From positions 4,244,501 to 4,308,500 of the forward strand of contig NZ_CP045354.1 of assembly GCF_009363435.1 (NCBI RefSeq): 64,000 nt of DNA. The letters are read 5' to 3'. Position 1 is the stretch's first letter, and each line of letters starts with the position of its first letter. Origin of the DNA: Labrenzia sp. THAF82 (GTDB lineage Bacteria > Pseudomonadota > Alphaproteobacteria > Rhizobiales > Stappiaceae). Positions 3,937 through 41,545 of this stretch are shown one piece after another. Made by a program: the position numbers and the translations under genes. The notes under the pieces were generated by a model. It was not told the DNA's origin. It did no database searches and saw only the letters and a list, made by a program, of their open reading frames with translations.

Positions 3937-4224
3937 CAGTCGTATGTTTTCGATCTGTTTCCAATTGGCGTTTACAAGCGCAATAACTTGCGGACAACTT
4001 TAACAGGCGTCTGAGCTGTCATTGCAGGTATCGCGAAAGAAAACTACTCTTCGAACTAAATAGAGCACCTGCCCACGATCTTGTTGATCGATGTAGTTTG
4101 ATGTGTGAATTGGTGTTGCTTCGAAAGCGACTACTAACTCGACGATAAGTCGAAGGACTTTGGCTGCCCAGCGTCAAGCGGCGCTCAGCCACTGCGTGAG
4201 TTAGCCTGTCCGGGTTCGGAAGGA

Positions 4225-4923: not shown

Positions 4924-4971
4924 TCTTATTGGCTACAATAAATTTTGGGTGAATTTGTCCGGTGCAAGATC

Positions 4972-6442: not shown

Positions 6443-7392
6443 GTCAGATTCGCCTCTATTTGGCCGACGAACCGCCGGTGTTCCCACGCATCGACTATCG
6501 CATCGCAAGAACCTCGAACAAGGTCCATCCGTGGAATCTGCTTAGAGAAAGGCCTGTCCTGTCCTTCAGCCAAACCAATGAAATCTTTCATTAAATTGAG
6601 AAAAAGAGAGTTTCTTTCCTTCGGTAATGTTTTTGTGTCCTTCGGACCAATGCCAGAAACAACAACCGTGTTCGTCTCAAAATCGTATTCCAAGCTCTCA
6701 TGCAGCCCTTCGCAATTTCCACGTCTGACAAGATGCGGAGCAAGGTAGTCCATTTGAATTGTACATAGCCCCACCTTTTTGCCTTGCGCCGAAATAGAAG
6801 ACGCAACATCCACCCCCTTAAAGGTTGGATGCTCAAGACAAGCAACGCTGGTCACACTAAGCTCAGGGTCCAGAATACAAGCCATATCGATTTCGTGACA
6901 CAGGTCCAATAGTACCCCACCACCCTCGGGATCGGAGGCATAGCTTTCCGAAAAACACCACTCACTGCGCCACTGATTGACATCATGGCCGATTGTAAAA
7001 GTGGACCGAAAGGGGTTCGACAGTTTGAATTCCGCCAGCTTTTGAACAATTGGATGGTATCGCATCATGAAACCGACTACGGACCGCCGCTGCAGTTCCT
7101 CCGGAATGGAAAAAATCTGGTCTAGTTGATCCCTTGTGTATGCCAGGGGCTTCTCGATGTAGAGAGGCACATCATATTCAGCGCATCGCGATATGAGTTC
7201 GAAGCGGATGCGTGTTCCTGTTGCTATCACCACCGCCACGCGACTTTTCTTTTGCTTCAGCATCGCATCAAACATAAGGCTATCAAATCGACGCCAAGGG
7301 AGCAGCTCTGCTTGCTTACCAAGCGCCTTTAGGTTGTCGAAGTGCCTTTTGCCGATGGATCCCGCACCGACGACGACATAGGTAAATTCCAT
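6439..7392 (-). CDS. Gfo/Idh/MocA family oxidoreductase (PtmF-like context)
   Basis: NAD(P)-dependent sugar oxidoreductase of 317 aa. The N-terminal Rossmann motif GAGSIGKRH is at residues 9-17. The family signature EKPLA follows (YIEKPLAYTRDQLDQI), and the second domain carries GGVLLDLCHEIDMA, where the His is the usual catalytic position. It is the first gene of the minus operon and overlaps the CMP-sugar synthetase gene by 4 bases. A Gfo/Idh-type gene next to a CMP-nonulosonate synthetase and SDR recalls ptmF-ptmB-ptmA. The substrate is probably a free or UDP-activated amino sugar or a nonulosonate; this is inference from neighbours. Confidence 0.88.
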   Translation of the reverse strand: MEFTYVVVGAGSIGKRHFDNLKALGKQAELLPWRRFDSLMFDAMLKQKKSRVAVVIATGTRIRFELISRCAEYDVPLYIEKPLAYTRDQLDQIFSIPEELQRRSVVGFMMRYHPIVQKLAEFKLSNPFRSTFTIGHDVNQWRSEWCFSESYASDPEGGGVLLDLCHEIDMACILDPELSVTSVACLEHPTFKGVDVASSISAQGKKVGLCTIQMDYLAPHLVRRGNCEGLHESLEYDFETNTVVVSGIGPKDTKTLPKERNSLFLNLMKDFIGLAEGQDRPFSKQIPRMDLVRGSCDAIVDAWEHRRFVGQIEANLT

Positions 7393-7708
7393 TGTCTTTT
7401 CCCAATTCGATTCGGTCCTGGGCAGAATCGATGCTTCACATACGGATCATTTCATCAATGAAGTATGGTTCGAAGCTATCCATTCGGTCGTGCCACAGAT
7501 TTTTTCGTCAAAATGCATATCTGAAGCACTTCACTCCGACTGTTAAAGTTAGTGGCGAACTAATACTGGCAGCAATAAAACACCCTTCCTCCAAGAAAAC
7601 TGCGGATAGACGAGTGAAACCTGCTCGAAATCTGTTTTTGTTTTTCCTGCACTGATAAGCTTCTACCGGTAATCAGTGTTTCGTAAAAAATACGGACAAG
7701 TCTCCTAC
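7393..7708. other. Divergent intergenic region
   Basis: The region lies between the minus-strand sugar operon and the plus-strand TPR gene and should contain both promoters. It is AT-rich by eye. No hairpin terminator, tRNA or coding frame with a ribosome binding site was found. A GTG at 7676 opens the TPR frame 33 bases before the preferred ATG. Confidence 0.35.
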
Positions 7709-9571
7709 ATGGCTTTAAAAACAGCTTCAAATCCGGCGCTTGAAAAGCTGCAGCGAGCTTTGGTCCTCCAAAAAGCTGGCGACTTTGAAAAGGCGCAGCG
7801 CCTGTACAAACAAGTTTTGAAAAAAGCGCCCAATCATCCTGATGCAAATCATCTTCTTGGTGTGACTTACCGGCAGCTCGGCGATCCCATGATGGCGATC
7901 AAACAGATCCAGAAAGCAATCAATATTGCCAACGATCGAGCGCCGTTTTATGCCAATCTGGCACGCGCAATGTCAGACATACCCAATGCGGACAATGAGA
8001 GTATACTGGCATTGACCAGACGAGCACTGGATCTTGATCCCTCGCTTATTGACGCCTGGAACCTGCATGCAATCAGTCTTTCCAAATGCGATATGGAAGA
8101 CGAAGCCGAACTCATCTTTCAGCGCCTTATTCAACGCTACCCGAACCATCCCGACGGTTATCGGAACTACGGTGTCATGTTGCGGGAGGCTAAGCAGCAC
8201 GAAAAAGCTATCACGTTTTTTTCCAAGTGCATCTTGATGGACCCGAATGGCTCGGAAGCCTACGTGTTGTTAGCCAAGTCCCTGCAAGACAACGGAGACT
8301 TTGACAAAGCACGCGATTTTCTGGAAAGAGCGCTGAAACGCTTTCCTGAAAACGATGACTTGCACCACGAATTTGCGAAATCATGCTTTCGCGATGGGAA
8401 CGCGATTGACGGCCTTGAATCGGCTGAATTTGCTTCTACAGTCGCCCCAAGGAATCCAGATCGACAAGTTACACTCGGTGTTTGTCTGCTGGCGCATACA
8501 CGCCACGAAGATGCAATTGATGCATTCAAAAAAAGCATAGACTTGGTTGGTGGAAATCACCCGACAGCAGAATGGAACCTGAGTTTGGCCTATCTTGGTG
8601 CCGGCAATTTGACCAAAGGCTGGGAGCACCATAGGGCTCGTTTTTCGGCAGACAATCTCCCAGTGATCTGTCGCAAATTCAATAAACCAGCGTGGGATGG
8701 CGAAAGCCTCAAAGGCAAAACGATCCTCGTACACGCTGACCAGGGTGTTGGCGATGCTTTGCGAGCCTCCACACTCTTTTCGGAAGTCATTGCTGAAGCA
8801 GACAAGGTTATCATCGAAGGATCTCAGAAACTCCTGGAACCCTTTGCTTACAGCTTTCCAGAAGCAGTCGTTCGATTGGCAAGCTTTGAAGCCGATACAA
8901 TGGAAGCCACTATTGACGACTATGACTGTCACACGGCGATGGCGGATCTACAGTGCTTCCTTCGACCGACGGTTGAGTCCTTTAAAAAAGCAAGGTTTCC
9001 ATGCCTCAAAGCGCGCCCTGAACGTGTTCAAGAGTTGTATGGTCGTTTGCCGGAAGCGGACGAAAAGCCGATCATTGGGATTTCTTGGCGGTCACGGAAC
9101 CTGGGCTCAGCCAGAGTGCGCAACTACTTTTCGGTCATCGATTTTGCGCCCATCCTGGAGACTGATGAGTGCATTTTTCTAAATCTCCAATACGCCAGTC
9201 TGGACAAGGAAATCCGATACCTGGAGCACAAAGCCAACCGAGACCAGTTTTTTCACTTTCGTGACGTTGATCAGTTCAACAATCTTTTGGACGCTGGAGC
9301 TATGACCGAGCTTTGCGATCTCGTTGTAACAGCCCCCACCAGCGTGTCGGATATGGCAGCGCTCCACAATGTGCCTTGCTGGAGCTTTGGAGACCCACAA
9401 GCCCATTTCAAACTCGGACAAGAAGTTTCTCCTTGGTACCCATCGATGAATCACACGGCGATAACGCCGGACCAAACTGTAGTGGACCTGGTACCGGAGA
9501 TTATCGACCGATTGGAAACTTGGAAAAAGAACTTCTCACCCGAACCGCGGCTGAAGCGCATTGGATTGTGA
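7709..9571 (+). CDS. Tetratricopeptide-repeat protein with C-terminal glycosyltransferase-like domain
   Basis: Tandem TPR units fill roughly residues 10-310 (for example FEKAQRLYKQVLKKAPNHPD followed by several 34-residue repeats with conserved Gly, Ala and Pro). The last about 300 residues are a GT-B/GT9-like module: ILVHADQGVGDALRAS, IGISWRSRN and a terminal segment APTSVSDMAALHNVPCW, which matches the nucleotide-sugar side of this fold in bacterial TPR-GT proteins. This is the architecture of O-GlcNAc-transferase-like and flagellin-glycosylating proteins. It lies directly upstream of neuB and neuC, so it may attach or handle the nonulosonic sugar. The start is taken as ATG at 7709 (620 aa); GTG at 7676 would add 11 residues. 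Confidence 0.8.
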   Translation: MALKTASNPALEKLQRALVLQKAGDFEKAQRLYKQVLKKAPNHPDANHLLGVTYRQLGDPMMAIKQIQKAINIANDRAPFYANLARAMSDIPNADNESILALTRRALDLDPSLIDAWNLHAISLSKCDMEDEAELIFQRLIQRYPNHPDGYRNYGVMLREAKQHEKAITFFSKCILMDPNGSEAYVLLAKSLQDNGDFDKARDFLERALKRFPENDDLHHEFAKSCFRDGNAIDGLESAEFASTVAPRNPDRQVTLGVCLLAHTRHEDAIDAFKKSIDLVGGNHPTAEWNLSLAYLGAGNLTKGWEHHRARFSADNLPVICRKFNKPAWDGESLKGKTILVHADQGVGDALRASTLFSEVIAEADKVIIEGSQKLLEPFAYSFPEAVVRLASFEADTMEATIDDYDCHTAMADLQCFLRPTVESFKKARFPCLKARPERVQELYGRLPEADEKPIIGISWRSRNLGSARVRNYFSVIDFAPILETDECIFLNLQYASLDKEIRYLEHKANRDQFFHFRDVDQFNNLLDAGAMTELCDLVVTAPTSVSDMAALHNVPCWSFGDPQAHFKLGQEVSPWYPSMNHTAITPDQTVVDLVPEIIDRLETWKKNFSPEPRLKRIGL

Positions 9572-9684
9572 GGGTGAGGATGCTCAGCCTAATAAGCTGC
9601 TACTTCTACCATGAGCCTTTTTTCGCGCCAGATCATTGCACACATGCAACTTTGCCCGTCCGGCAGCACTAAAGGATTAAATGT

Positions 9685-10716
9685 ATGCGCATTGCCAATC
9701 GTGAAATAGGCCCGGACCAGCCACCGCTCGTGATTGCCGAAATCGGGATCAATCATGGTGGAAGCCTTGATGTCGCAAAGTCCATGGTCGCAGCAGCAGC
9801 ACGCAGCGGCTGCGAGATGATCAAACATCAAACCCATTTCGTAGAAGACGAAATGACAGATGAGGCAAAGTCAATCTTTCCGCCCAACGCGGATGTCTCG
9901 ATCTATGATGTCATGCGCAAGTGCGCTTTGCTGCCTGAAGCTGAAAAGGAACTCAAGCAGTTCACCGAAGACCTTGGACTGATATATATCTCCACACCGT
10001 TTTCTCGTGCTGCTGCAGACTTTCTTGCCTCAATCGACGTTCCCGGCTTCAAGATCGGAAGCGGTGAATGCGATCACCTGCCCCTAATCAGGCATATTGC
10101 ACGTTTCGGTAAACCAATCATCATGTCAACTGGAATGCAGACGCTTGAGAGCATACGCCCATCGGTCGAAGTATTGGAAAAATCGGGTAATTCATACGCC
10201 CTCTTAGAATGCACAAACCTTTACCCCTCACCTCCTGAAATCGTTTCGTTGCAAGGCGTTCGTGAACTAAGAGCTGCGTTTCCTAAGGCTGTAATAGGTT
10301 TTTCAGACCATAGCATCGGTCCGGAAATGGCTCTTGCGTCCGTTGCACTTGGCGCATGTATCTTGGAACGACACTTCACAGACACCAGGTATCGGAAAGG
10401 TCCAGACATTTCATGCTCCATGGACCCTTCTGAGCTGCGTCACCTAATTGATCGTTCTCGCGAAATCCATGTCGCACTCCACAATAGAAAGCAAAGAACC
10501 AAACCGGAAGATGATGTTTACCGGTTTGCCCGCGGTTCTGTGGTTGCTGACCGCGACTTACCGGCAGGCCACATCATCACCGAAGAGGACATTTGGGCGC
10601 GGCGCCCTGGCAATGGTGAAATTCCCGTACATGATTTTGACAGAGTGATCGGCAGATCCCTAAGGCGAGCAGCGAAGCAGAACGATCAGTTGCGCTGGGA
10701 CGATCTAGAAAAGTAA
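9685..10716 (+). CDS. neuB: N-acetylneuraminate (or legionaminate) synthase
   Basis: Condenses phosphoenolpyruvate with a six-carbon amino sugar to form a nonulosonic acid. The 343-aa protein carries the full NeuB signature set: AEIGINHGG near residues 18-26, MIKHQTHFVEDEM near 45-57, NADVSIYDVM, ISTPFSRAAADF, KIGSGEC, STGM, SDHS and LERHFTD, whose histidines are metal ligands in the family. The C-terminal 60 residues form the SAF/antifreeze-like domain (RGSVVADRDLPAGHII, RRPGNGEIPV). The set is very close to what I recall of the Neisseria sialate synthase. It is followed 13 bases later by neuC. A second, divergent NeuB homologue is encoded at 14424-15464. Confidence 0.93.
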   Translation: MRIANREIGPDQPPLVIAEIGINHGGSLDVAKSMVAAAARSGCEMIKHQTHFVEDEMTDEAKSIFPPNADVSIYDVMRKCALLPEAEKELKQFTEDLGLIYISTPFSRAAADFLASIDVPGFKIGSGECDHLPLIRHIARFGKPIIMSTGMQTLESIRPSVEVLEKSGNSYALLECTNLYPSPPEIVSLQGVRELRAAFPKAVIGFSDHSIGPEMALASVALGACILERHFTDTRYRKGPDISCSMDPSELRHLIDRSREIHVALHNRKQRTKPEDDVYRFARGSVVADRDLPAGHIITEEDIWARRPGNGEIPVHDFDRVIGRSLRRAAKQNDQLRWDDLEK

Positions 10717-10729
10717 GGCGGAGCTCTGC

Positions 10730-11851: not shown

Positions 11852-11856
11852 GCCTT

Positions 11857-11893
11857 AACGCAAGCTTTGAAAATTTTCATATTAACTTGCGTT
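11857..11893. terminator. Candidate bidirectional hairpin between the two sugar clusters
   Basis: AACGCAAG at 11857-11864 pairs perfectly with CTTGCGTT at 11886-11893 around an AT-rich 21-base loop. It lies exactly between the stop codons of two convergent genes, and its right arm touches the stop codon at 11893-11895. A short T-rich tract is inside the loop rather than after the stem, so termination strength is uncertain. Confidence 0.4.
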
Positions 11894-12921
11894 TAGCAAA
11901 AATTGACATCACTTGACTTACCCCAGTCCACAATCTGTCTTGGAACTAGCTGATCTCCGGTACCTTTGAAGAGTACAACTGGCTCCTCAGCTAGATCAGA
12001 ATTGTTAAGCCGAACCCCAAAATGAACTTTTGAATTCACGGCTTGAAACGGGAAAAAGTTGTTCGGCACAATCGTCTCATTACTATCGCAGTTAAGAGCT
12101 TCAAATCCAGCGCGCTCAAATACCTCCACATCAATCCCAGCGACCATGACGTCAACGTGTCGGCAGTTTTCGTCGAAAGCCTTTCGTTTAAGAAATTTGA
12201 GAACGAAATCAATTCCCTCAAGCTTACCAAAGTAATCATAAAGGCGCAGAATTCGACCTATCGGTGTTTCATAAGAAGCAGTGACAAGTACGAACGACTC
12301 TTCACCGTAAACTCCCTCGAATACTTCGAATACTTGCGAAAAATTATCTATATAACTCTTCTTCAAGAACCAAAAATCTTTACGTGGTAGAAAATCTGAA
12401 TGTGGAAAACGTTCTTGCAAATTTAACAGATTTTCTTTGGTAGAGATCAATCGAACGGAAAAATCCAAGCTGGGTTCTGTTGACTCTTGCGGTGTCGATT
12501 TTCGTGGTTGCCAGTAAAACTGGCTAAAGAGCCCGCATCGATGTTTTACTCTACGGTAGAATGGCAAGAGGCGCTCGATAATTCCGGCTGTAAAATACCC
12601 TTCAGGCGCGACACTTTCGAGAAATGATTTCATGAAGGCCTGACCGACAAACGGAAGGCCCTCCATAGGCTTGAACAAAAATAGGCAGCCCGCAGCGTCC
12701 GTTTGTTGGCGGTTGTAAAAGAGAAAGGGCCATACACCGATTAATTCATCGTCTTCGAAAGCAGCATAAATATTCAGATGCCTGCCAACTTCATAGAAAT
12801 GGCGCACCATTTCCGGATGAATTACATAAGAATGCGTTTCCCCGTAGTTGTCACGAACAAAGTCTACAAATCGCGATAGTTCACTCGCAAGGAGCTGCCG
12901 ATGACTTAGATTGCGTTTCAC
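11893..12921 (-). CDS. GNAT/FemAB-like acyltransferase-type protein, function unknown
   Basis: The last gene of the eight-gene minus-strand operon. I prefer the GTG at 12921, preceded by GGGAGGAAACG; a TTG at 12957 just after the upstream stop codon gives 12 more residues. The N-terminal half contains LNIYAAFEDDELIGVWPFLFY, a strand-turn-strand pattern usual in GNAT/BioF2-like acyltransferases of glycan loci. The C-terminal half has RLYDYFGKLEGIDFVLKFLK, VFERAGFEAL and IVPNNFFPF, a pattern I associate with putative acyltransferases in O-antigen clusters. It may transfer the acyl group made by the carrier-protein genes of this operon. Family and role are low-certainty. Confidence 0.55.
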   Translation of the reverse strand: MKRNLSHRQLLASELSRFVDFVRDNYGETHSYVIHPEMVRHFYEVGRHLNIYAAFEDDELIGVWPFLFYNRQQTDAAGCLFLFKPMEGLPFVGQAFMKSFLESVAPEGYFTAGIIERLLPFYRRVKHRCGLFSQFYWQPRKSTPQESTEPSLDFSVRLISTKENLLNLQERFPHSDFLPRKDFWFLKKSYIDNFSQVFEVFEGVYGEESFVLVTASYETPIGRILRLYDYFGKLEGIDFVLKFLKRKAFDENCRHVDVMVAGIDVEVFERAGFEALNCDSNETIVPNNFFPFQAVNSKVHFGVRLNNSDLAEEPVVLFKGTGDQLVPRQIVDWGKSSDVNFC

Positions 12922-12957
12922 CCGAGATCGTTTCCTCCCAATATTTGGAGCCGTCAA

Positions 12958-14388
12958 CTATGAATCTGCCACAATGGAAGATCGGTAAACCGCACCCAAC
13001 TGGTGGTAGTTTATTTTACCGCTTTCTGTTCGCGGGAATTTTTCCAGTCTGTGAAAACTGAAGTCCTTAGTCTGAAATTTCAGTTTTGTTGCGAGAAAAC
13101 GAGACAAACAAACTGTGTCATGCGCTTTCGAATAGAATACCACGACCTTCTCGTCGCATTCGATACAAACAAATTGACCTGGCCACTCTGCAGCGAGTGA
13201 TGCTTCGATATCGTCCAGCGAAACGCTATGACCATACAATTTGACCATCCGTTTTTTCCGGCCAGTAACAAAGATAAAACCATCTTCATCCACAAAACCC
13301 GTATCTCCAGTCGACAACTCTCCGCACCAGCTATCGTCAAGCACAAGATCATCGGTATTTTCCGCATATCCCATACAGACATTCAGTCCGCGATAGACGA
13401 TTTCGCCCACGACGTTACTTGAAGACCCGGCGGCTTTTTCGGATTTTATTTCGATTTCACCACCTTTGAGCGGATAGCCCACACTCCGGCTTTTTTCTGG
13501 ATATTCGTTTAGGCAAAAACAGCTGATTCGGGTCGTAGCTTCAGCCTGACCGTACATAATATAGAATTTCTTAGCTGCTTCCTGACACCAGCCTGAAAAA
13601 AAATCACTTAACTCCGGTGACAGTTTCCCCCCAGCTTGAGCAAGTACATGCAAGTACGGCAATTCCTGGTGGTGGATTTTGAGTTTTTTCAACATTTCAA
13701 ATGTGAAAGGAACACCGTACAGAACTCCGACTTCACCATCACGCATCCTTAGCCAAAAATCCTTTTGCATGATCGAATGAGATGTCAAGTGGATCGTAGA
13801 TCCAACAGATAAATGGGTATGCAAAACGGACATGCCGAAGGTGTAATTCAACGGTAGTGTCGTGATCGTCGACAGGCTTTCATCAAGGCTAAGACTCTCA
13901 GCGATCCCAACAGTATTTATTGATAAATTTTCCCGTGTCTGACGCACTAGTTTTTTGCTTCCTGTCGACCCGGATGTCGTTGCGAGAAGTGCTAGCTGAG
14001 GATGCAAATCCAATCTGGCGAACTTGCTTGTGACCCAAAGATCATAATCGTTCAGAGATGCTGCCAGCTTGAAGCCGGTAACATCGATTTTTAGCGTTCG
14101 TGGCTTCCAAAGGTAGTATGGCCGATACTCATTAACGTAGTCGACAAGGAATGAGGGTTCGATTTGTGTTCCCAACATGATGGGCACAATGCCGGTGTTC
14201 AGGAAAGTGAGGTAACCCACCACACAAGCGACGGTGTTTTCGCAAAAGCAAATCGCGAGCGTTCTGTGATTTTCCAGCTTGTTCGAAAACTCGTCCACCA
14301 TGCTGACGAGCTCGGCATATCGATAACGGTCGCCATCATCCGTTTGAATCGCGACCTTTTCAGCAAATTGGTCAATGCTGAAAATCAT
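12958..14388 (-). CDS. AMP-forming acyl/aryl ligase (ANL superfamily)
   Basis: Activates a carboxylic acid as acyl-AMP and transfers it to CoA or a carrier protein. The 476-aa protein has the P-loop TTSGSTGSKK at residues 137-146, YGQAEAT at 279-285, the hinge region STGDTGFVDEDGFIFVTGRKKR, and the C-terminal catalytic lysine near residue 458 in ESGKINY. It is shorter than typical acyl-CoA synthetases (about 550 aa), nearer to stand-alone adenylation domains. With an acyl carrier protein in the same operon, loading of that carrier is plausible. It starts 35 bases after the end of the second neuB-like gene. Substrate unknown. Confidence 0.85.
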   Translation of the reverse strand: MIFSIDQFAEKVAIQTDDGDRYRYAELVSMVDEFSNKLENHRTLAICFCENTVACVVGYLTFLNTGIVPIMLGTQIEPSFLVDYVNEYRPYYLWKPRTLKIDVTGFKLAASLNDYDLWVTSKFARLDLHPQLALLATTSGSTGSKKLVRQTRENLSINTVGIAESLSLDESLSTITTLPLNYTFGMSVLHTHLSVGSTIHLTSHSIMQKDFWLRMRDGEVGVLYGVPFTFEMLKKLKIHHQELPYLHVLAQAGGKLSPELSDFFSGWCQEAAKKFYIMYGQAEATTRISCFCLNEYPEKSRSVGYPLKGGEIEIKSEKAAGSSSNVVGEIVYRGLNVCMGYAENTDDLVLDDSWCGELSTGDTGFVDEDGFIFVTGRKKRMVKLYGHSVSLDDIEASLAAEWPGQFVCIECDEKVVVFYSKAHDTVCLSRFLATKLKFQTKDFSFHRLEKFPRTESGKINYHQLGAVYRSSIVADS

Positions 14389-14423
14389 TTCGCCGCCTCA
14401 TTTGTGCAGGATCCGCTCTGTGC

Positions 14424-15464
14424 TCACATTGACAAACCTTGGTGCTGAATGTCGGCCTCTTTAATAACCTTCCCTTTTTCTATGCCCTTTGAGAGGGCCA
14501 TTCCAATATAGGTTTCAATCCTATCCGGCGGAATGCCTGTTCCAGGTCGCTTGAAAACAACATCCTCGCGCTTGAGACTTTCACCAACTTTTAGATCTCG
14601 GACTGCAACTGCACTTCGTCTCATTTGAAGCCGTTGCTTGAGTTCGACTTCTGTCAGTTGCCTTTCTGAACTTCCAAGGGCATCAGCTATTCTGCGACAA
14701 TAGGAGATCATTTGAGAAAACTCGTCAGGCTCGGTTGCCATTTGATTGTCCATGCCGATCTGACTGCTATTGAGCGTGAAGTGTTTTTCGATGACCCTCG
14801 CACCTAAAGCTATCGCTGCTACCGCGGCCTCCGGTCCTTTCGTGTGGTCCGAATACCCAACTGTCGCATTGGGAAAGCGTTTCGCCAGCATCGCAACGTT
14901 GTTGAGATTGCAAATCTCAGGTGGGCAAGGATAGACGGACACGCAGTGTAGAAGGCATAGGTCATTGTGGCCTGCCTTTTCAAAGACAGCTACAGCTCTT
15001 TCAATTTCCTGCATGCTTCCCATACCGGTTGAAAGAATCGTCGTTGCATGTTTGCTGGCAATGTATTCTAAAAAAGGAATGTTGTTCAAATCCATAGACG
15101 CAATTTTGATAAATTCGACATCGCACTGTTCAATTAGAAAATCGACTTCATCTATTGAATACGGCGTTGAAGAAAATCCAATTCCGATAGACCTGCAATA
15201 ACTTGAGATTTCCCTGAGTTCTCCGGAACCCATTGAATACTTTTTAAAGAACCGCTTTGCGATTGGATTTTCTTTGAAATAGGCATCTGCATAAAGGCTT
15301 TCTTCCGTCCAGGATTGAAATTTCACGCAATCCGCGCCAATTTCCTTACACTTGAGAACCATCTCCTGTGCCGTCTCGACCTTTCCAAAGTGACTGGTGT
15401 TCAATTCGGCGACAATATATGGACTGTTCTCAAAGATGGATCGAGCAGAGGCGTTGTTATTCAT
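14424..15464 (-). CDS. Second NeuB-family PEP-condensing synthase, divergent
   Basis: A TIM-barrel synthase of 346 aa with a C-terminal SAF domain (VAVRDLKVGESLKREDV, KRPGTGIPP). VKFQSW, FSSTPYS, KIASMDLNN, STGM, SVYPCPP, GYSDHTKGPEAAVAA and IEKHFTL place it in the NeuB/PseI/LegI family, with the metal-binding histidines kept. The usual N-terminal AEIGxNHxG reads AELNTSHFG, so the family Asn is Ser, and the KHQTH of the other NeuB in this window is KFQSW. It lies inside an operon with acyl-reduction genes, not with neuC or neuA. The substrate is probably not ManNAc but another aldose or aldehyde; that is inference. Confidence 0.85.
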   Translation of the reverse strand: MNNNASARSIFENSPYIVAELNTSHFGKVETAQEMVLKCKEIGADCVKFQSWTEESLYADAYFKENPIAKRFFKKYSMGSGELREISSYCRSIGIGFSSTPYSIDEVDFLIEQCDVEFIKIASMDLNNIPFLEYIASKHATTILSTGMGSMQEIERAVAVFEKAGHNDLCLLHCVSVYPCPPEICNLNNVAMLAKRFPNATVGYSDHTKGPEAAVAAIALGARVIEKHFTLNSSQIGMDNQMATEPDEFSQMISYCRRIADALGSSERQLTEVELKQRLQMRRSAVAVRDLKVGESLKREDVVFKRPGTGIPPDRIETYIGMALSKGIEKGKVIKEADIQHQGLSM

Positions 15465-15482
15465 GGCAGCAGACGCTTTTCC

Positions 15483-17264
15483 TTATTGATCAATAACTGG
15501 AACGATCATTTCGTTTTTGAGCACGCTCCTTTCCATGAAGGGAAATTGGTCCTCCAATGGCCGACGCACAAACCTTCTTTCCTGGGTCTTGGCAAAAGAG
15601 ACCTCAAGATAAACTTGTTCGGCCAGACCATCGATCTCTATCAATATGGCTTCAGGTCGTTGAAGCAACCCACCAAGATCCTGTTCCAAGGTGTCAAGGT
15701 TCTCGAGTTTGGTATACGCGATGCCAAAGGCAGCGGCGACCGAGGAAAACCTTGGCACTCCAACACCATTTGACTGATCCGTGCCAATTGTCCGCTTGCG
15801 GAAAAGTTCCTTTTGACGCCGCTTGATAATTGCATAGCCACCATTGTTGACGACGATGACTTTTACCGGCAGCCCATTGTGGACGATGGTTTGAAGTTCT
15901 TGCAGGTTCATCATTATCGAGCCGTCGCCAATGACGGCAACTGTCGGTTTTTCCGTTGCCAGCCACGCACCCATTGTCGCAGGAAGAGCAAATCCCATTG
16001 CGCCTTGATAAACTGGATGCACGCATTTCTGCCCCAGAGAAAAGCGCATATTTGTTGGTAGGATTACATCGATGAATCCTGAATCACATATGAAATTCGC
16101 CCTCTCGGGCAGCACATTTGACAAAACTCTAGCGAAATTATGCAGGTCAATCGCTGTGTTTTGATTTTCCCACACATCGTAGTCGGCAAACAGTGTTTTC
16201 CAGTGTAGGCACTTTTTGAGCCAATCACTGTTCGTTCTGAATTTCTTTGAAGACAAGATATCAAGCATCTGCCCCGGCCGGATATGTATTATCCTATTGA
16301 ACAGGTCCTTGTTTCGCTCGAACTCCTCGATATTCTCATCCACGACGATAATATCGGCCTTGCGGGCAAATTTGTGCGCATCTGCCCCAACGACGGAAGA
16401 AGGCAATCTGGAGCCCAGTACAAGCAGTAGATCTGAGTTTTGGACTGCAAATGCACCAGCTCTGGAACAGCCCATTGCTCCAACTGATCCTATAGAATGA
16501 CTATTTGCCGTACCGTAGACATCAGTTGCTGATGACGTAAAGGTCACCGGTATATCGTTGCGTTCCGCAAATGCCTTGAGGCTTTCCGCGGCGTTGTCGA
16601 GCTTGACACCACCGCCTACCAGGATGACAGGACGCGTTGCGCTCTTGAGGCTCTCCTCAAGAAATGCAAGATCATCCCCGCAAACTTTAGCATTTTGTTC
16701 TTCGTCCGGTTCAAACCCTAGCAGAGTATCCGGATCGACACGCATATTCTGAACATCCAGCGGAATATCAATCCAAACGGGACCAGGCCTTCCTTTGTTC
16801 GCGAGCGCTGTCGCTTTTTCCAGTTCAAAACGGATAGTGGTGGGGTCACTGACAAAAGCGCAGTGTTTTGTTATCGGGCTTACTAGTTCTACAATATCCG
16901 CTTCCTGTTGCCCGTAGGTTCTGATCGGTTCACCGGTATGGCGCCTGGTCTCAGCAAGGGTGTTTTGACCGGAAACGAAATAGCAAGGAATCCCGTCCTG
17001 CCAGGCCGTCAGTACGCCGGTAATAGCGTTGGTAGACGCACAACCGGTCGACGTAAGACATACAGCAGGCCGATCAGAAGCTTGAGCATAGGCAACCGTA
17101 GCGAAGGCAGCTGCTTGCTCATGGTGCGGACACACAGCTTGCAACGCATCGTTTTTCTCAACAGCATCCGTCAAAAACAAAGCGCCACGGCCGGTGACAA
17201 GGAAGACATGCCGTGCACCAAGGGAAGCAAAATAATCGAAAACGTAGTCAGCGACGCGCTTCAA
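15483..17264 (-). CDS. Thiamine-diphosphate-dependent enzyme, acetolactate-synthase-like carboligase
   Basis: A full-length 593-aa ThDP enzyme. The cofactor-activating Glu49 is in PHHEQAAAFA. The central domain carries RPVILVGGGVKL, and the ThDP/Mg motif runs from GDG at 446-448 to NN at 473-474. It starts with TTG at 17264, supported by AAGGAG nine bases upstream and by a 4-base overlap (TTGA) with the stop codon of the FabZ-like gene. Related enzymes in glycan loci (YerE, CarB) join a two-carbon unit from pyruvate to a keto sugar to make branched sugars. Here it could instead condense an aldehyde made by the LuxC/LuxE pair. Both are inference. Confidence 0.85.
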   Translation of the reverse strand: MKRVADYVFDYFASLGARHVFLVTGRGALFLTDAVEKNDALQAVCPHHEQAAAFATVAYAQASDRPAVCLTSTGCASTNAITGVLTAWQDGIPCYFVSGQNTLAETRRHTGEPIRTYGQQEADIVELVSPITKHCAFVSDPTTIRFELEKATALANKGRPGPVWIDIPLDVQNMRVDPDTLLGFEPDEEQNAKVCGDDLAFLEESLKSATRPVILVGGGVKLDNAAESLKAFAERNDIPVTFTSSATDVYGTANSHSIGSVGAMGCSRAGAFAVQNSDLLLVLGSRLPSSVVGADAHKFARKADIIVVDENIEEFERNKDLFNRIIHIRPGQMLDILSSKKFRTNSDWLKKCLHWKTLFADYDVWENQNTAIDLHNFARVLSNVLPERANFICDSGFIDVILPTNMRFSLGQKCVHPVYQGAMGFALPATMGAWLATEKPTVAVIGDGSIMMNLQELQTIVHNGLPVKVIVVNNGGYAIIKRRQKELFRKRTIGTDQSNGVGVPRFSSVAAAFGIAYTKLENLDTLEQDLGGLLQRPEAILIEIDGLAEQVYLEVSFAKTQERRFVRRPLEDQFPFMERSVLKNEMIVPVIDQ

Positions 17265-17752
17265 CTATGCTTCTCCTTCATTTTTTGGAAAATGGCATCA
17301 GTCGCGCTCCTGATTGAAACGACAAAATCTGCCGAACAAGCGAATTCGTCTCCGACATATGCATCGGCTTTCCCTCTCGCTATGCCTCTTTTCAAGGAGG
17401 CAAGTTCAGCATTCACCACAAGGGTATCGCCAGGGACAATCTGCCTACGGAAACTACCATTGCCGATATTTAGGAAATTTGTTTTGCTGCCTTTATGCTC
17501 AGGCATGGTCAGAAACGTCATAATAAAAGTCTGAACCATCGTTTCGACCAAGATGAATCCAGGCACAGTGGGCTCATCCTCATAGTGTGCTGGAAAAAAC
17601 CACTCATTATAAGAAAATGCTTTGACCCCGGTTGCGCGTTGCTTGGGCACGACATCGACAACCTTATCGAGAAATAGGATCGGATGCCGATTTCTCTGAC
17701 ATTCCTTGATGCCATTGATATCGAAATTGAGCTTGGGACTCCCGGTCATCAA
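17261..17752 (-). CDS. FabZ-like 3-hydroxyacyl-ACP dehydratase (hot-dog fold)
   Basis: A 163-aa hot-dog protein. RNRHPILFLDKV at about residues 20-31 matches the FabZ opening motif, and the active-site pair is present: His56 in FFPAHYEDEPTVPG and Glu70 in FILVETMVQ. The central helix and strands are of normal length. It overlaps the ACP gene by 4 bases upstream and the ThDP-enzyme gene by 4 bases downstream, so the three are surely co-translated. It should dehydrate a 3-hydroxyacyl chain on the neighbouring carrier, or act as a non-catalytic thioester-binding partner. It is not the housekeeping fabZ, which normally sits with lpxD and lpxA. Confidence 0.85.
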   Translation of the reverse strand: MMTGSPKLNFDINGIKECQRNRHPILFLDKVVDVVPKQRATGVKAFSYNEWFFPAHYEDEPTVPGFILVETMVQTFIMTFLTMPEHKGSKTNFLNIGNGSFRRQIVPGDTLVVNAELASLKRGIARGKADAYVGDEFACSADFVVSIRSATDAIFQKMKEKHS

Positions 17753-17988
17753 ATTGTAATTTCGTATCTTAACAGAACTTCCTTGCCCTTGCGGAAGTCC
17801 GAGATATCCGTGATATCGTCAATCTCCATTTCAATACCGAATTCATCTTCTAGCGCAGCTACAAGATTCATGTGGCCTATACTATCCCACTCCGGTATAT
17901 CCTGGTACTTCAACCCCTCCAGCTCTTGTTTTTGGACAGGAAATGCTTCCATGAAGCATTTTTGATACTTTTCAATGTTTTCCGACAT
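17749..17988 (-). CDS. Acyl carrier protein
   Basis: A 79-aa acidic four-helix carrier with the phosphopantetheine site DSIGHM (Ser36), followed by LVAALEDEFGIEMEIDDI, the canonical helix II. It needs a 4'-phosphopantetheinyl transferase from elsewhere. It is positioned between the acyl-CoA reductase gene (67 bases upstream) and the FabZ-like gene (4-base overlap), so it most likely carries the intermediate of this operon rather than serving bulk fatty acid synthesis. Confidence 0.9.
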   Translation of the reverse strand: MSENIEKYQKCFMEAFPVQKQELEGLKYQDIPEWDSIGHMNLVAALEDEFGIEMEIDDITDISDFRKGKEVLLRYEITI

Positions 17989-18055
17989 TTCTGGTTGTTC
18001 CGCTCACTGCCTTCGTTTGAGCCAGTTCAATTCTTAATGCGTTTCTGGCACTTAC

Positions 18056-19267
18056 TTATTGAACCAAAACGAATTTTGACATCTGGCCAATCAAATCGTA
18101 TCCGTCCCAGATGACATCAAACGCCGTTGCGTTTCCTATTTTTACCAGCCTGTCCGCACTGAGTTTTGTGGGTGTGCTCAGCAAAAGTGCCTCCAGCTCT
18201 GTTTGCGCAAACCCAAAGTGCGTTACAGTCTGTAATTGATGGTCATTTATCACTGGCAAGGCCGCCAAGTTATCAACTTGCACCTGCAAAAAATATCCGC
18301 CCGCAGCAAAATTATCAGCATTCTCAAGCGCTTCTGCCGTCGTGGTTACGGTCACGTTGCCCGTCATTTTGCTTCGCGACACCTTCGGCTCAAATCCACT
18401 GACAGCCAGACCCGCAATCTTCGTAAGCTTCTCATTCGTCTTTGAAGCAGGGCATTTGTAGCCCTTACGTTGCATTTGTTCATCCAGTTGGTTCCAGAAC
18501 AGCTCTTGAGCTTGTGAAACTGTACCCTGATCTCCGATCCAAAGGACTGCTTTCGGTGAAGAACATGCGTTTTGATCAAAGACGAAAGTATCGTTGTAGA
18601 AAGCTGTCGCAATGCCTCTTTTGTCCTTCTCCTCAAGATATTCCTTTGCAGAGATCAGGCAGATCGAATACCTATCGGGAAAAGTGATATCGTACGCATG
18701 TGGTTTCAACGGAGCCTTGCGAATGGTTCTTACGGTTTGATTGCCCCCCCAAATTACTCGAATGTCGGCAATATCTCCCAGTGCTTGGTTTAGTGTTTCG
18801 TCAGCTTTAGACCGAAACAAATAAACCCTATTATGAAGAGCCTCAAACTCGGAACATGACAAGATAGTATCCAGCTTCTCAACTACAAAGTCGGTCTCAG
18901 CATTTGTGTTGTTCGAAAGGCGCACGACGCAGGAATTGCCGGCCAACAGTGCAACAATCAGACTGTAGCAGAAATTCAATGGGACGTTTGATGGCGTGTA
19001 GTGAATGGAGTGGCCCCGACCAATACGAATTGCGTCGTTGCTGGCGTACCTTCGAGCAACTATGGAGAGATTGGCGCGCCGGCAGAAAAACCCAAGACTA
19101 ACGACATCCGGATAGGCGCGAGCTTCGCCCTTCATGAGTTTCTCTGAAAATGCAGACAACATATCGACCACCAGTGGATCGAATATCTTTCTCGATCCCT
19201 CTTTCAGCAGTTCGTCAAAGCTTCTAGCGCCGGCTATGCGACTATGATTGAGGTCTTGGAAGGTCAA
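18056..19267 (-). CDS. LuxC-family acyl-CoA (fatty acid) reductase
   Basis: An NADPH-dependent reductase that turns an acyl thioester into an aldehyde; in luminous bacteria it works in a complex with LuxE. The 403-aa protein has the catalytic Cys235 in FDQNACSSP, the LuxC signature. TPSNVPLNFCYSLIVALLAGN is the aldehyde-dehydrogenase-type nucleotide-binding helix, and IRVIWGG lies between them. It is somewhat shorter than Vibrio LuxC (about 477 aa). Its ATG overlaps the LuxE-like stop codon by 4 bases (ATGA). No luciferase genes are near, so the aldehyde is not for light; a biosynthetic use in the glycan island is the reasonable reading. Confidence 0.88.
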   Translation of the reverse strand: MTFQDLNHSRIAGARSFDELLKEGSRKIFDPLVVDMLSAFSEKLMKGEARAYPDVVSLGFFCRRANLSIVARRYASNDAIRIGRGHSIHYTPSNVPLNFCYSLIVALLAGNSCVVRLSNNTNAETDFVVEKLDTILSCSEFEALHNRVYLFRSKADETLNQALGDIADIRVIWGGNQTVRTIRKAPLKPHAYDITFPDRYSICLISAKEYLEEKDKRGIATAFYNDTFVFDQNACSSPKAVLWIGDQGTVSQAQELFWNQLDEQMQRKGYKCPASKTNEKLTKIAGLAVSGFEPKVSRSKMTGNVTVTTTAEALENADNFAAGGYFLQVQVDNLAALPVINDHQLQTVTHFGFAQTELEALLLSTPTKLSADRLVKIGNATAFDVIWDGYDLIGQMSKFVLVQ

Positions 19268-20337
19268 AGTGTATCGCTACAGCCTCTTATTTCAGCTTCT
19301 GCCAAACGACCCAGGACCCGAAAATATTTGCCTTTCCGTCCACAAGGACAATCATCCTCTCCGAGTAACATGCCCAAGTCATCGGTCAAAAGTGAATGAC
19401 CAGGATAGGAGTAGGGGAAAATCGACAAAGTTTGAATGAACCCTTCTTCGCCGAAGTTTTTGTTTTCAAGCGAGATGGTATCTCTGATCAGAATATCGTT
19501 GAATACACTGCAATGTAGGTGGCCTGCGTTGCATTCGACATAAATTGAACCTGTTTGTTCTACCATGCCGTAATAGTCGTGGACGCGTGAGATGTTGAAT
19601 TGCTGCTTAAGCCGTTCTTTAAAAGCGGTGGGAGGCACAGCTTTATTGATCAGTTTTTTCCAACCACCGCCGTGTAAAAGTATGGCGTTAGACATGTCAA
19701 TTTTTAGGTCTGACTCTGCCAAGGCCTCACACAGAGAGGTCCAAATCAGGAAGGTAAAACCAAAAACAAAAACGGCTTTGTCTTTGTGTTGATCGAAAAA
19801 TCTCTTGATCCTCGGAAGGTCTGGTTTGAGGTCGTGGTCCAAAGCAAAAACAGGTCGGCGTCCAAACATCGAAAACCCGCGAATCGCAGCACCTCGTGCC
19901 GAAAAATTCGCATTTGCTCCCATTGCACCTTCACTGTCGACAACAAGCATTGGCAGGCGCTGCCCGCCTAAAACGCTATTAAGCGTTTTCGTGAGCCCCT
20001 TCGTCTGCAAATTGGCGGTCTTTTTATCCAACACTATTTCCGAGGGGATTTGACCTGAAGTTCCCGACGAGCGCATGTATTTGAAAACGTCTTCATCCGG
20101 AATGCTTTTGAGCCTGTGTTCTTTGAACACGCTCACCGGTAAATACGGAAGCTCTCCTATGCTGGCTCCAAAATTGCGGCCTCCGAACAATGCATTGATC
20201 ATCGCTTTATATTCGCTGCATCGGTCGTAGTGAAATTGGGTCAGTTCACTCAAATTACGTTGCAGGAACGTGCCCTTTTCGGCACGCGTCATAGAATATG
20301 GAGCGATTTCAAAAATATTATCCATCGTGTCGGTCAT
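19264..20337 (-). CDS. LuxE-family acyl-protein synthetase
   Basis: ATP-dependent enzyme that adenylates a fatty or short acid and holds it as a thioester before handing it to LuxC. The 357-aa protein has the adenylate-loop motif YMRSSGTSGQIPSE, the central HGGGWKKL and YYGMVEQTG, and a cysteine four residues from the C-terminus (Cys353 in RGCSDTL). That is the place of the acylated cysteine in Vibrio LuxE. A zinc-knuckle-like CPCGRKG precedes it. It is the first gene of the minus-strand operon running to 11893. The substrate acid is unknown. Confidence 0.88.
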   Translation of the reverse strand: MTDTMDNIFEIAPYSMTRAEKGTFLQRNLSELTQFHYDRCSEYKAMINALFGGRNFGASIGELPYLPVSVFKEHRLKSIPDEDVFKYMRSSGTSGQIPSEIVLDKKTANLQTKGLTKTLNSVLGGQRLPMLVVDSEGAMGANANFSARGAAIRGFSMFGRRPVFALDHDLKPDLPRIKRFFDQHKDKAVFVFGFTFLIWTSLCEALAESDLKIDMSNAILLHGGGWKKLINKAVPPTAFKERLKQQFNISRVHDYYGMVEQTGSIYVECNAGHLHCSVFNDILIRDTISLENKNFGEEGFIQTLSIFPYSYPGHSLLTDDLGMLLGEDDCPCGRKGKYFRVLGRLAEAEIRGCSDTL

Positions 20338-20597
20338 TTGCTTGGGCTTACCATTGATGGACTCGGGGAATGATTGCCACCTTCCGCAATCTAAACAAAA
20401 GACTTAAACTGCGCGCGTTTCCCGGACTTGTTGTGAATTGCTTATCAACAGAAATAATCTGCCCCCCCTCTCCAACCAGATGCTTCCAGGATACAATGCC
20501 AGGACTTGAATTCAGTCGAATGGCGAAACAAAAGTTCAATTAGGCGCGCGTCCCTTTGTCGGCCTTAGGTTCTCTCCGCCCTTGGAACAGTGAAGAG

Positions 20598-21533
20598 GTG
20601 AAATTGCGGTTCGAACGCCCCACCGGTCTGATGTTCCATCATTTTCATGGACAAGACCATCCGCAGACCCAAGGCAGCATCAGTGGCAATACCTTCGAAT
20701 CGATTCTTGAGTTCATCTCCCAAGATCATAGAATTCTCAAAGCGAAAGACTGGCTAGACCGGGCGAAAGCTGGCTCGTTGGAACGACAAGATGTTTGTGT
20801 GACGTTCGATGATACACTCGCATGCCAATACGATGTGGCCCTGCCTGTTCTTGAAAAGCTTGACCTTACGGGTTTCTGGTTTGTTTATACCTCAATTCTC
20901 GAAGGCGGTTTGGAACCACTGGAAATATTTCGCTATTTCCGCACAACATGTTTTGAAACCGTTGATCAGTTTTATGAGCGCTTCTTCGAGCTCTCAAATG
21001 AATTCCTGTTGGAAGCTTATTGCACAGCAGAATACCGGTTCGAACATGCCAGTTATCTTGCGCACGCCAGCTACTATTCACGCAATGACAGATGGTTCCG
21101 ATATCTGCGAGACAACGTACTCACATCTAAAAGCTACAGATCGATTATAGAACTTATGATGAAAGAAAAACGCTTTTCGATTGATGTCGCAAGAGACAAG
21201 CTCTGGTTAACCTCTTCACAAGTCAAGCATTTGTCGCAGTCAGACCATGTTGTTGGACTTCATTCTCACACGCATCCAACCACGCTTGCTGAACTTCCCT
21301 TTGCCGAACAAAAAACTGAATATGAGCTAAACTCCGACAGTCTCAATGCTTTACTCGGTTGTCGACCAGACACAGTTTCACACCCCTGCAACTCCTATAA
21401 TTGCCAGACGCTTGCAATTCTAGATTCGCTTGGTGTGCAAATCGGCTTCCGAGCAAACCGGCTTTCGGTTGAAAACCGATCTGAACTCGAGTACGCGCGT
21501 GAAGATCACGCAAATATTTTACCGCTGTTGTAG
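20598..21533 (+). CDS. Polysaccharide deacetylase-like (NodB homology) protein
   Basis: A carbohydrate-esterase-4-like protein of about 311 aa. The metal motif TFDD is present in DVCVTFDDTLACQYDVALPVLEKL, and the second metal motif appears as VGLHSHTHPTTLAEL. The C-terminal HPCNSYN and GFRANRL correspond to the RxPxG and related loops, degenerate here. It is divergent to the LuxE-led operon and closes the glycan island. The start is uncertain: GTG at 20598 is chosen because the sequence after it (KLRFERPTGLMFHHFH) is conserved-looking, while the TTG at 20556 adds 14 non-conserved residues. It probably de-N-acetylates a surface or precursor glycan. Confidence 0.75.
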   Translation: MKLRFERPTGLMFHHFHGQDHPQTQGSISGNTFESILEFISQDHRILKAKDWLDRAKAGSLERQDVCVTFDDTLACQYDVALPVLEKLDLTGFWFVYTSILEGGLEPLEIFRYFRTTCFETVDQFYERFFELSNEFLLEAYCTAEYRFEHASYLAHASYYSRNDRWFRYLRDNVLTSKSYRSIIELMMKEKRFSIDVARDKLWLTSSQVKHLSQSDHVVGLHSHTHPTTLAELPFAEQKTEYELNSDSLNALLGCRPDTVSHPCNSYNCQTLAILDSLGVQIGFRANRLSVENRSELEYAREDHANILPLL

Positions 21534-21570
21534 GGTTTGCAGCCCCACCGTCGGCACCGCATCAAATAGC

Positions 21571-21598
21571 GAAAAACCCGTCTAAAAACAGACGGGTT
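21571..21598 (-). terminator. Rho-independent terminator of the ferredoxin-NADP reductase gene
   Basis: A perfect 9-bp stem, AACCCGTCT (21575-21583) with AGACGGGTT (21590-21598) around AAAAAC, is followed on the minus strand by a run of T (A-run at 21572-21576 on the plus strand). It lies 25 bases after the stop codon of the minus-strand gene. Confidence 0.85.
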
Positions 21599-21622
21599 CA
21601 CTTTGGAAACGATAGCAGTTTT

Positions 21623-40560: not shown

Positions 40561-40587
40561 CCACGTCCGGATCGGAACGACAAACTG

Positions 40588-40619
40588 AAGGCGGATCATT
40601 CGATCCGCCTTTTCTTTTT
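40588..40619 (+). terminator. Rho-independent terminator after fhs
   Basis: A perfect 10-bp stem, AAGGCGGATC (40588-40597) with GATCCGCCTT (40602-40611) around ATTC, is followed by a T-rich run to 40619. Confidence 0.92.
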
Positions 40620-41515: not shown

Positions 41516-41545
41516 GGCTGAGACATGTTCAAGGAGGCTGCCGAT

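What the first reader, a model, noticed from the sequence alone, without database searches (positions are those of the whole stretch)
11893..20337. Eight-gene LuxE-LuxC-ACP-FabZ-ThDP-NeuB-ligase-acyltransferase operon without luciferase
Seen: a single minus-strand run with 4-base start/stop overlaps (19264/19267, 17749/17752, 17261/17264) joins a LuxE-type acyl-protein synthetase (Cys353), LuxC-type reductase (Cys235), an ACP (Ser36), a FabZ-like dehydratase (His56/Glu70), a ThDP carboligase (Glu49, GDG-NN), a NeuB-family PEP synthase, an AMP ligase and an acyltransferase-like protein. Known: LuxCE reduce acids to aldehydes, ThDP enzymes join two-carbon units to carbonyls, NeuB condenses PEP with an aldose aldehyde. 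Inference: the operon makes an aldehyde that is extended by the ThDP enzyme and PEP to give a new acyl- or 3-deoxy-ulosonic-type building block for a surface glycan.
Basis: partly seen in the sequence, partly recalled or inferred. Interest (0 to 1): 0.92.

Follow-up and report, generated by a model that had tools for sequence, protein, structure and literature searches.

The report
Conserved acyl-chain operon for surface sugars
Eight neighbouring genes in a marine bacterium, seven of them kept together in very different bacteria, probably build an unusual acid side chain that is hung on an amino sugar of a surface glycan, using a sialic-acid-type enzyme and a thiamine enzyme in an unexpected role.

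Summary
Confirmed: eight minus-strand genes (11893-20337) encode LuxE, LuxC, ACP, FabZ-like, ThDP, NeuB-family, AMP-ligase and (by predicted fold) a tandem-GNAT acyltransferase. The set is not chance. Of 80 related loci, 28 have a close ThDP homologue; 23 of these hold at least six of seven core genes, and the other five lie on contigs that end there. None of 47 loci with distant ThDP homologues has LuxE or LuxC.

A new ulosonic sugar is unlikely: a CMP-sugar synthetase gene was seen near 1 of 22 related operons. What recurs instead are acyltransferase clusters (16 of 23) and DegT transaminases (11 of 23).

Best reading: the operon makes an unusual acyl-ACP for N-acylation of an amino sugar, extending the LuxE/LuxC/ACP/ligase set known from flagellin glycosylation islands. 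The ThDP enzyme is nearest to JanthE (YerE-like), a class with members that use 4-hydroxy-2-oxo acids, which a NeuB-type condensation would supply. The product is unknown and nothing was assayed.

The parts
19264..20337 (-). LuxE-type acyl-protein synthetase (357 aa; Cys353; motif SSGTSG at 90)
   Evidence: PF04443 173 bits; Cys353 invariant in 16 aligned sequences; only LuxE family match found in the genome
18056..19267 (-). LuxC-type acyl reductase (Cys235 in QNACSSP)
   Evidence: PF05893 92 bits; only solved chain matched is 7xc6, long-chain acyl-protein thioester reductase
17749..17988 (-). acyl carrier protein (Ser36 in WDSIG)
   Evidence: PF00550 20.3 bits, just under the cut-off 20.8; homologue in 22 of 23 complete loci
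17261..17752 (-). FabZ-like hot-dog dehydratase (His56, Glu70)
   Evidence: PF07977; FabZ models 100-107 bits, under their cut-offs
15483..17264 (-). ThDP carboligase, YerE/JanthE-like (Glu49, GDG, NN)
   Evidence: three TPP domains; best solved match 8rph 304 bits, next 225
14424..15464 (-). NeuB-family PEP condensing enzyme of an operon-specific clade
   Evidence: PF03102 plus SAF; clade supported 99/99
12958..14388 (-). AMP-forming acid:ACP/CoA ligase
   Evidence: PF00501; homologue in all 23 complete loci
11893..12957 (-). tandem-GNAT acyltransferase, putative N-acyltransferase; the true start may be 36 bases downstream
20556..21533 (+). polysaccharide deacetylase-like; may expose the amine to be acylated (inference)
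   Evidence: PF01522; PF01522 genes also by the operon in L024 and L029
10730..11851 (+). NeuC-type UDP-GlcNAc 2-epimerase of the neighbouring nonulosonic acid set
   Evidence: TIGR03568 342.7 bits, over its cut-off 235.9
9685..10716 (+). second NeuB (sialic-acid-synthase type), next to NeuC
   Evidence: TIGR03569 348 bits, cut-off 399.65; outside the operon NeuB clade, on a long branch
7676..9571 (+). TPR protein, possibly FlmG-like nonulosonic acid transferase (inference)
   Evidence: TPR families; a 46% identical TPR protein is kept in the alternative allele of the same locus in G044
5747..6508 (-). NeuA-like cytidylyltransferase
   Evidence: PF02348
3935..21621 (.). variable glycan island: 17.7 kb here, replaced by about 6.8 kb in a same-species genome
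   Evidence: flanks 98-99% identical in G044, interior not matched as DNA; GC mostly 44.5-50% inside versus 50-56% to the right

Best explanation
The operon is a horizontally spread pathway that builds an unusual acyl group on an acyl carrier protein and transfers it to the amino group of a sugar in a surface glycan. Shown by sequence: the seven core genes form one conserved module; it travels with several kinds of acyltransferase and often with amino-sugar transaminases; the last gene here has a predicted tandem GNAT fold. Inferred: the ligase loads an acid on the ACP; LuxE (ATP) and LuxC (NAD(P)H) reduce a carboxylate to an aldehyde; the NeuB-family enzyme adds PEP to that aldehyde, giving a 4-hydroxy-2-oxo acid; the YerE/JanthE-like ThDP enzyme decarboxylates a 2-oxo acid (that one, or pyruvate) and joins it to a carbonyl; FabZ dehydrates a 3-hydroxyacyl-ACP; the GNAT moves the acyl to a sugar amine, perhaps exposed by the neighbouring deacetylase. 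The order of steps and the final structure are not known.
For: 23 of 28 loci with ThDP of 500 bits or more hold at least 6 of 7 core genes; the other five (L018, L027, L033, L035, L036) lie on contigs that end there; 0 of 47 loci with ThDP of 400 bits or less have LuxE/LuxC. NeuB follows ThDP in 27 of 28 by script; in the 28th, L017, the stop-to-stop NeuB ORF overlaps the ThDP end. Acyltransferase-type clusters in 16 of 23, DegT in 11 of 23 (cluster members tested only in part). L014 has dTDP-glucose dehydratase, a DegT transaminase, a GT56-family gene and a WecD-like acyltransferase around the set; WecE-type transaminases in L021 and L031 exceed their cut-offs. ACP/ligase/LuxE/LuxC sets without ThDP-NeuB also sit with acyltransferases: L101 with PIG-L deacetylase and hexapeptide transferase, a Deinococcus plasmid, a Rhizobium plasmid. 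ThDP is nearest to 8rph, whose CDG motif and five listed pocket residues match JanthE (by eye; PMC12188165 part 1); ErwE prefers 4-hydroxy-2-oxo acids (PMC12247030 passages). The operon NeuB is a separate clade, 99/99.
Against: No enzyme was assayed and no glycan structure is linked to any of these loci. The island here has no DegT transaminase or sugar dehydratase among the proteins scanned, so the amine-bearing sugar is uncertain. 7 of 23 complete loci show none of the four acyltransferase clusters, and 12 of 23 no DegT. 8 of 23 have a 4,6-dehydratase of cluster c9; of the four tested, three are CDP-glucose type (L016, L020, L029), which would also fit YerE-type sugar branching. Of five loci with ThDP between 400 and 500 bits (L039, L041, L043-L045), three have LuxE and LuxC but none has NeuB, so ThDP does not always need NeuB. 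If LuxEC without ThDP or NeuB also serve acyl synthesis, the aldehyde may simply be reduced, and NeuB/ThDP may act elsewhere.
Confidence: 0.55

Rival explanations
1. One reading: the NeuB-family enzyme makes a new 3-deoxy-ulosonic sugar, CMP-activated and built into the glycan, with LuxEC and ThDP making its aldehyde precursor.
For: A NeuA-like gene, NeuC and a TPR protein that may be a transferase lie in the same island; L040 has a NeuA-like gene by the operon. Motifs at recalled active-site positions of NeuB are largely kept.
Against: The island already has a second NeuB beside NeuC. Only 1 of 22 relatives showed a CTP_transf_3 gene near the operon (family search with contig positions of LuxE known for 12 of the 22; the rest by a single-sequence search, which may miss distant ones; L015, the 23rd, was not in the family search). 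ACP, ligase and acyltransferases are unexplained.
Confidence: 0.14
2. A YerE-type branched sugar: the ThDP enzyme adds a chain derived from a 4-hydroxy-2-oxo acid, made by LuxEC and NeuB, to a nucleotide keto-sugar, as ErwE does for erwiniose.
For: Closest solved relative is JanthE; ErwE uses 4-hydroxy-2-oxo acids; CDP-glucose 4,6-dehydratase near the operon in L016, L020, L029.
Against: No sugar 4,6-dehydratase among the island proteins scanned here; c9 dehydratases in 8 of 23 complete loci, one of the four tested being of dTDP-glucose type; where a 4-transaminase is present the 4-keto group would be aminated; ACP and FabZ are not needed. The four JanthE pocket residues that map without a gap are all changed (by eye).
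Confidence: 0.17
3. A diffusible hydroxyketone or lipid signal, as ThDP carboligation of a LuxC aldehyde would give, unrelated to glycans.
For: ThDP lyases of this superfamily make acyloins from aldehydes and LuxCE make fatty aldehydes in lux systems (general knowledge).
Against: Neighbours in relatives are glycan genes (glycosyltransferases, sugar dehydratases, aminotransferases) and the locus here varies like a glycan island; a PEP synthase is not expected.
Confidence: 0.06

Closest known systems
LuxE/LuxC/ACP/FabG/AMP-ligase sets of flagellin glycosylation islands (Aeromonas group II, PMC7874193; Enterobacteriaceae, PMC4875605; Dickeya zeae EC1 insert between flagellar genes, PMC4522980; passages seen)
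   Same: LuxE, LuxC, ACP and an AMP ligase without luciferase in or beside flagellar glycan loci; the papers read them as fatty-acid synthesis; the Dickeya set also has two transketolases (ThDP enzymes) and an acetyltransferase
   Different: no YerE-like ThDP enzyme and no NeuB of this clade mentioned in the passages seen; FabZ in one strain only (PMC4875605)
Vibrio cholerae O1 tetronate (rfbKLMNO) acyl pathway (gene functions recalled, no call; the held library gave only a mention of tetronate-acylated perosamine, PMC6479008, passages)
   Same: as recalled: ACP, AMP ligase, LuxC/LuxE-like reductase and acyltransferase making an N-acyl for a 4-amino sugar
   Different: as recalled: the aldehyde is reduced by an alcohol dehydrogenase; no NeuB, ThDP or FabZ
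YerE-like ThDP enzymes (YerE, ErwE, JanthE)
   Same: closest solved relatives of the ThDP enzyme; use 2-oxo acids, some of them 4-hydroxy ones
   Different: YerE and ErwE branch nucleotide keto-sugars; here GDG, not JanthE's CDG, and JanthE V121, Y268, P293 and Y297 align with Q119, M264, S290 and A294 (by eye; Q119 and M264 invariant in 20 aligned relatives)
NeuB/PseI nonulosonic acid synthases
   Same: NeuB plus SAF domains, PEP-condensing family
   Different: separate clade, under the equivalog cut-offs, in relatives mostly without a CMP-sugar synthetase nearby

Membership tests
bacterial bioluminescence (lux) operon | luciferase LuxA/LuxB with LuxCDE | tested here: not met
   none of the eight operon proteins or the neighbours scanned matches a luciferase family; LuxE and LuxC score far under the lux equivalog cut-offs, 76.5 vs 550 and 58.6 vs 750
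LuxE/LuxC/ACP/ligase set of flagellin glycosylation islands | LuxE, LuxC, ACP and AMP ligase together | tested here: met
   same set in L106, L107, L111-L113
LuxE/LuxC/ACP/ligase set of flagellin glycosylation islands | located beside flagellar genes | tested here: not met
   the four flagellin genes found are at 2.56 Mb, the window at 4.24-4.31 Mb of the same contig
N-acyl (tetronate-like) pathway | dedicated acyltransferase using the ACP-bound acid | tested here: inconclusive
   predicted tandem GNAT fold for the last gene; substrate not testable
N-acyl (tetronate-like) pathway | alcohol dehydrogenase that reduces the aldehyde (recalled feature) | tested here: not met
   none among the eight operon proteins; an SDR lies at 4972-5754 in the island
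YerE-like ThDP lyases | sequence closest to YerE-like enzymes among solved ThDP enzymes | tested here: met
   8rph 304 bits and 5ahk 225 bits before acetolactate synthases at 180 and below; 8rph as JanthE by its residues, 5ahk as PpYerE recalled
YerE-like ThDP lyases | ketone acceptor, tertiary alcohol product | not testable with these tools
   needs enzyme assay
acetolactate synthase | reaches the curated equivalog score | tested here: not met
   297 vs 738 and 280 vs 538 bits
sialic/pseudaminic acid synthase (NeuB/PseI equivalogs) | reaches the curated score | tested here: not met
   297 vs 399.65 and 254 vs 340 bits; the second NeuB of the window also misses, 348 vs 399.65
sialic/pseudaminic acid synthase (NeuB/PseI equivalogs) | encoded with a CMP-sugar synthetase | tested here: inconclusive
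   seen in 1 of 22 relatives; the window has a NeuA-like gene, but also a second NeuB beside NeuC

The most novel reading that the evidence does not exclude
A NeuB-family enzyme that condenses PEP with a non-sugar acyl aldehyde made by LuxEC, possibly while carrier-bound, followed by a ThDP carboligase: chain building by sugar-type aldol and acyloin chemistry without a ketosynthase, to make polyhydroxylated or branched N-acyl groups of surface glycans in many phyla.
Probability: 0.4. Interest if true: 0.78.

Novelty: new variant of a known kind. Interest (0 to 1): 0.62.

Why it matters
LuxE and LuxC are usually read as bioluminescence or fatty-acid genes and NeuB as a marker of sialic-type sugars. 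If this reading holds, a widely spread pathway uses both for something else, annotations that infer nonulosonic acids from NeuB alone would mislead in these loci, and unexplained glycan substituents become testable. One candidate is the unknown 102 Da moiety of the Aeromonas AH-3 flagellin glycan (PMC7874193, passages): that island type has LuxE, LuxC, ACP, reductase and ligase, and a dihydroxybutyryl residue (C4H6O3) would weigh 102.03 Da. This link is inference.

Tried and rejected
Chance assembly of unrelated genes: rejected by the conserved set and, more weakly, by co-divergence. Acetolactate synthase for amino acids: rejected by scores and context. This exact gene set in print: not recognised in the listings of searches of the held open-access library (passages of PMC7874193, PMC4875605, PMC6479008 and PMC4522980 were seen, none read whole); subscription papers are not held, so it may exist. 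A search for the Treponema denticola flagellin glycan with a polyhydroxylated acyl chain (recalled) found nothing. ThDP and NeuB relatives on plasmids: none at the limits used; LuxE on 13 plasmid records, 10 of them Rhizobium, of which 3 were inspected. NeuB residues at recalled ManNAc-binding positions do not decide the acceptor: most are kept, and one Asn is Ser, as in PseI. The fold match is to tandem GNAT proteins and N-myristoyltransferases alike, so the acyl substrate is not told. JanthE K567 falls in a gapped stretch and is left out of the residue comparison. One structure prediction, one genome search and one family search were left unused.

Limits: cluster labels rest on one or a few tested members each; the label 'flippase' there was given by eye and never tested. 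The 28 loci are not independent: three are Chromobacterium; L018 and L032 carry identical NeuB; L100 (G136) repeats L022. Some of the 47 distant loci are short records. L053 (Helicobacter saguini), counted among the 47, has its ThDP in two ORFs and does have ACP, FabZ and NeuB of this type on a contig that ends there. The tree left out NeuB ORFs under 300 or over 420 residues (L017, L027, L033, L034 among the 28 loci) and warns of long branches among the outgroup rows, the window's second NeuB included. The co-divergence test used 19 of 23 complete loci (L019, L034, L040, L042 left out). L113 has only a weak DegT hit, 29 bits, and also a transketolase-type pair.
Full report

Setting. The host is probably Roseibium-like: the nearest named LuxE is from an uncultured Roseibium, 88% identical (inference). 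The ten proteins scanned in the 20 kb left of the window are not glycan genes. A same-species genome (G044) matches the window at 98-99% up to base 3934 and from base 21622. Between these it has about 6.8 kb of other genes: a TPR protein 46% identical to the one here, a NeuB-family protein, a NeuA-like protein, a sugar dehydratase and a methyltransferase. So the locus swaps glycan cassettes. The ThDP gene is in 2 of 87 genomes of the family and 2 of 385 sampled genomes of the class, this genome counted in both. GC is lower inside the island.

Conservation. 28 have a ThDP score of 500 bits or more. Of these, 23 have at least six of the seven core genes; the remaining five are on contigs that end there. 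NeuB follows ThDP in 27 of 28 by script, and in the 28th (L017) on inspection; FabZ precedes it in 24 of 28; the core genes found lie on one strand in 27 of 28. The 28 loci span Pseudomonadota, Bacillota, Thermodesulfobacteriota, Elusimicrobiota, Candidatus Melainabacteria and SAR324. None of 47 loci with ThDP of 400 bits or less has LuxE or LuxC; of the five between, L039, L044 and L045 have both, L041 and L043 have neither, and none of the five has NeuB. Across 19 complete loci plus the window the distances of LuxE and ligase (rho 0.87), NeuB and ligase (0.77), LuxE and NeuB (0.71) and ThDP and NeuB (0.68) go together, Mantel p 0.001 each; FabZ with LuxC (0.21, p 0.073) and FabZ with ligase (0.24, p 0.081) do not reach 0.05. 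Relatedness of the hosts was not controlled for.

What goes with it. Of the 23 complete loci, 16 have a gene of four acyltransferase clusters: WecD-like in 4, PglD/hexapeptide in 5, GNAT in 4, relatives of this window's tandem GNAT in 3. 11 have a DegT transaminase and 8 a 4,6-dehydratase. Four of six WecD-like members match the dTDP-4-amino-4,6-dideoxygalactose acyltransferase model. L021 and L031 have transaminases over the WecE-type cut-off. In Vibrio sinaloensis (L014) a dTDP-glucose dehydratase, a GT56-family gene, the WecD-like gene and a DegT transaminase surround the set. A PF01522 deacetylase-like gene is beside the operon here and in L024 and L029, which also carry a relative of the tandem GNAT. 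These different amine sources and acyltransferases around one fixed core point to an acyl donor as the common product (inference).

LuxE-LuxC without NeuB. LuxE was found in 3 of 149 genomes of the Symbiopectobacterium family and 4 of 369 of the Vibrio class. All seven loci have ACP, ligase, LuxC and a DegT hit (the DegT hit of L113 is weak). Two have YerE-like ThDP and NeuB of this clade (L014, L026). L106, L107 and L113 have transketolase-type pairs by sequence search, tested by Pfam for both halves in L107 and one in L106. L111 and L112 have neither. L044 and L045 have LuxE, LuxC, a ThDP gene and a transketolase pair (one half of L045 by Pfam). A Rhizobium leguminosarum plasmid has a split transketolase, an acyltransferase, an AMP ligase, LuxE, LuxC, SDR and FabZ. 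A Deinococcus plasmid has ACP, SDR, ligase, LuxE, LuxC and an acetyltransferase among glycan genes. A Ponticoccus plasmid has ACP, SDR, ligase, LuxE and a LuxC. In print, Dickeya zeae EC1 carries such a set with two transketolases between flagellar genes, which its authors thought unlikely to serve flagellar biogenesis (PMC4522980, passages). The Aeromonas and Enterobacteriaceae islands carry LuxE, LuxC, ACP and ligase (PMC7874193, PMC4875605, passages). So ThDP enzymes of two unrelated kinds are paired with LuxEC in part of these loci, which supports the aldehyde as a carboligase substrate (inference).

Enzymes. The ThDP protein is nearest to 8rph (304 bits), then 5ahk (225), then acetolactate synthases (180 and less). 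8rph carries a CDG motif and V, Y, P, Y and K at the positions listed for JanthE with a constant offset of one (by eye; PMC12188165, first of three parts read), so it is JanthE. YerE-like enzymes join 2-oxo acids to ketones; ErwE prefers 4-hydroxy-2-oxo acids (PMC12247030, passages). A NeuB-type condensation of PEP with an aldehyde gives a 4-hydroxy-2-oxo acid (established chemistry of the family). The operon NeuB forms its own clade (28 rows including the window, 99/99 support) with a motif SM[DE] (SQD in L026) in place of SGE in the window's second NeuB. A CMP-sugar synthetase family gene was seen near 1 of 22 related operons.

Verdict. The gene set is real and is a conserved module, not a curiosity of this genome. 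Acyl-group synthesis for N-acylation is the best-supported reading (0.55); a branched sugar (0.17) or an ulosonic sugar (0.14) are the main rivals. As recalled, the O1 tetronate pathway of Vibrio cholerae uses ACP, ligase, LuxE/LuxC-like reductase and acyltransferase for an N-acyl of perosamine; this is the closest precedent, but no call tested it beyond a mention of tetronate-acylated perosamine (PMC6479008, passages). None of the listings of searches showed me a paper on the core with NeuB and YerE-like ThDP.

Noticed in passing
window 7676-9571: TPR protein with an unassigned C-terminal half, 46% identical to the one in the alternative allele (L099); size and TPR N-terminus resemble FlmG of Caulobacter (596 aa, TPR plus GT-B; PMC7591256, passages), a flagellin glycosyltransferase. 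The two were not compared by sequence.
   Followed up: partly
window 3935-21621 versus L099 4012-10848: Same-species genomes carry different glycan cassettes at one site with 98-99% identical flanks.
   Followed up: partly
L106, L107, L113, L044, L045, L116: LuxE-LuxC loci that carry a transketolase-type pair, another ThDP carboligase, in place of or beside the YerE-like enzyme.
   Followed up: partly
L105 5172-10029: LuxE domain at the end of an 810 aa frame beside an 812 aa frame with LuxC and a weak AMP-binding match: a different LuxEC arrangement.
   Followed up: no
L034, L036, L037, L040, L047: Several FabZ-like ORFs per locus around the ThDP gene.
   Followed up: no
L015 506-5342: A second ThDP gene next to a long frame with a NeuB-like domain of another type.
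   Followed up: no
window 38848-46724: Formate-THF ligase, B12-binding protein, MTHFR-like, pterin-binding and RACo genes: looks like a corrinoid methyl-transfer one-carbon cluster.
   Followed up: no
G000:C1:5935370-5936131: A third NeuB-family gene far from the island.
   Followed up: no
L053 9998-11787: ThDP gene of Helicobacter saguini reads as two ORFs; broken or a sequencing error.
   Followed up: no
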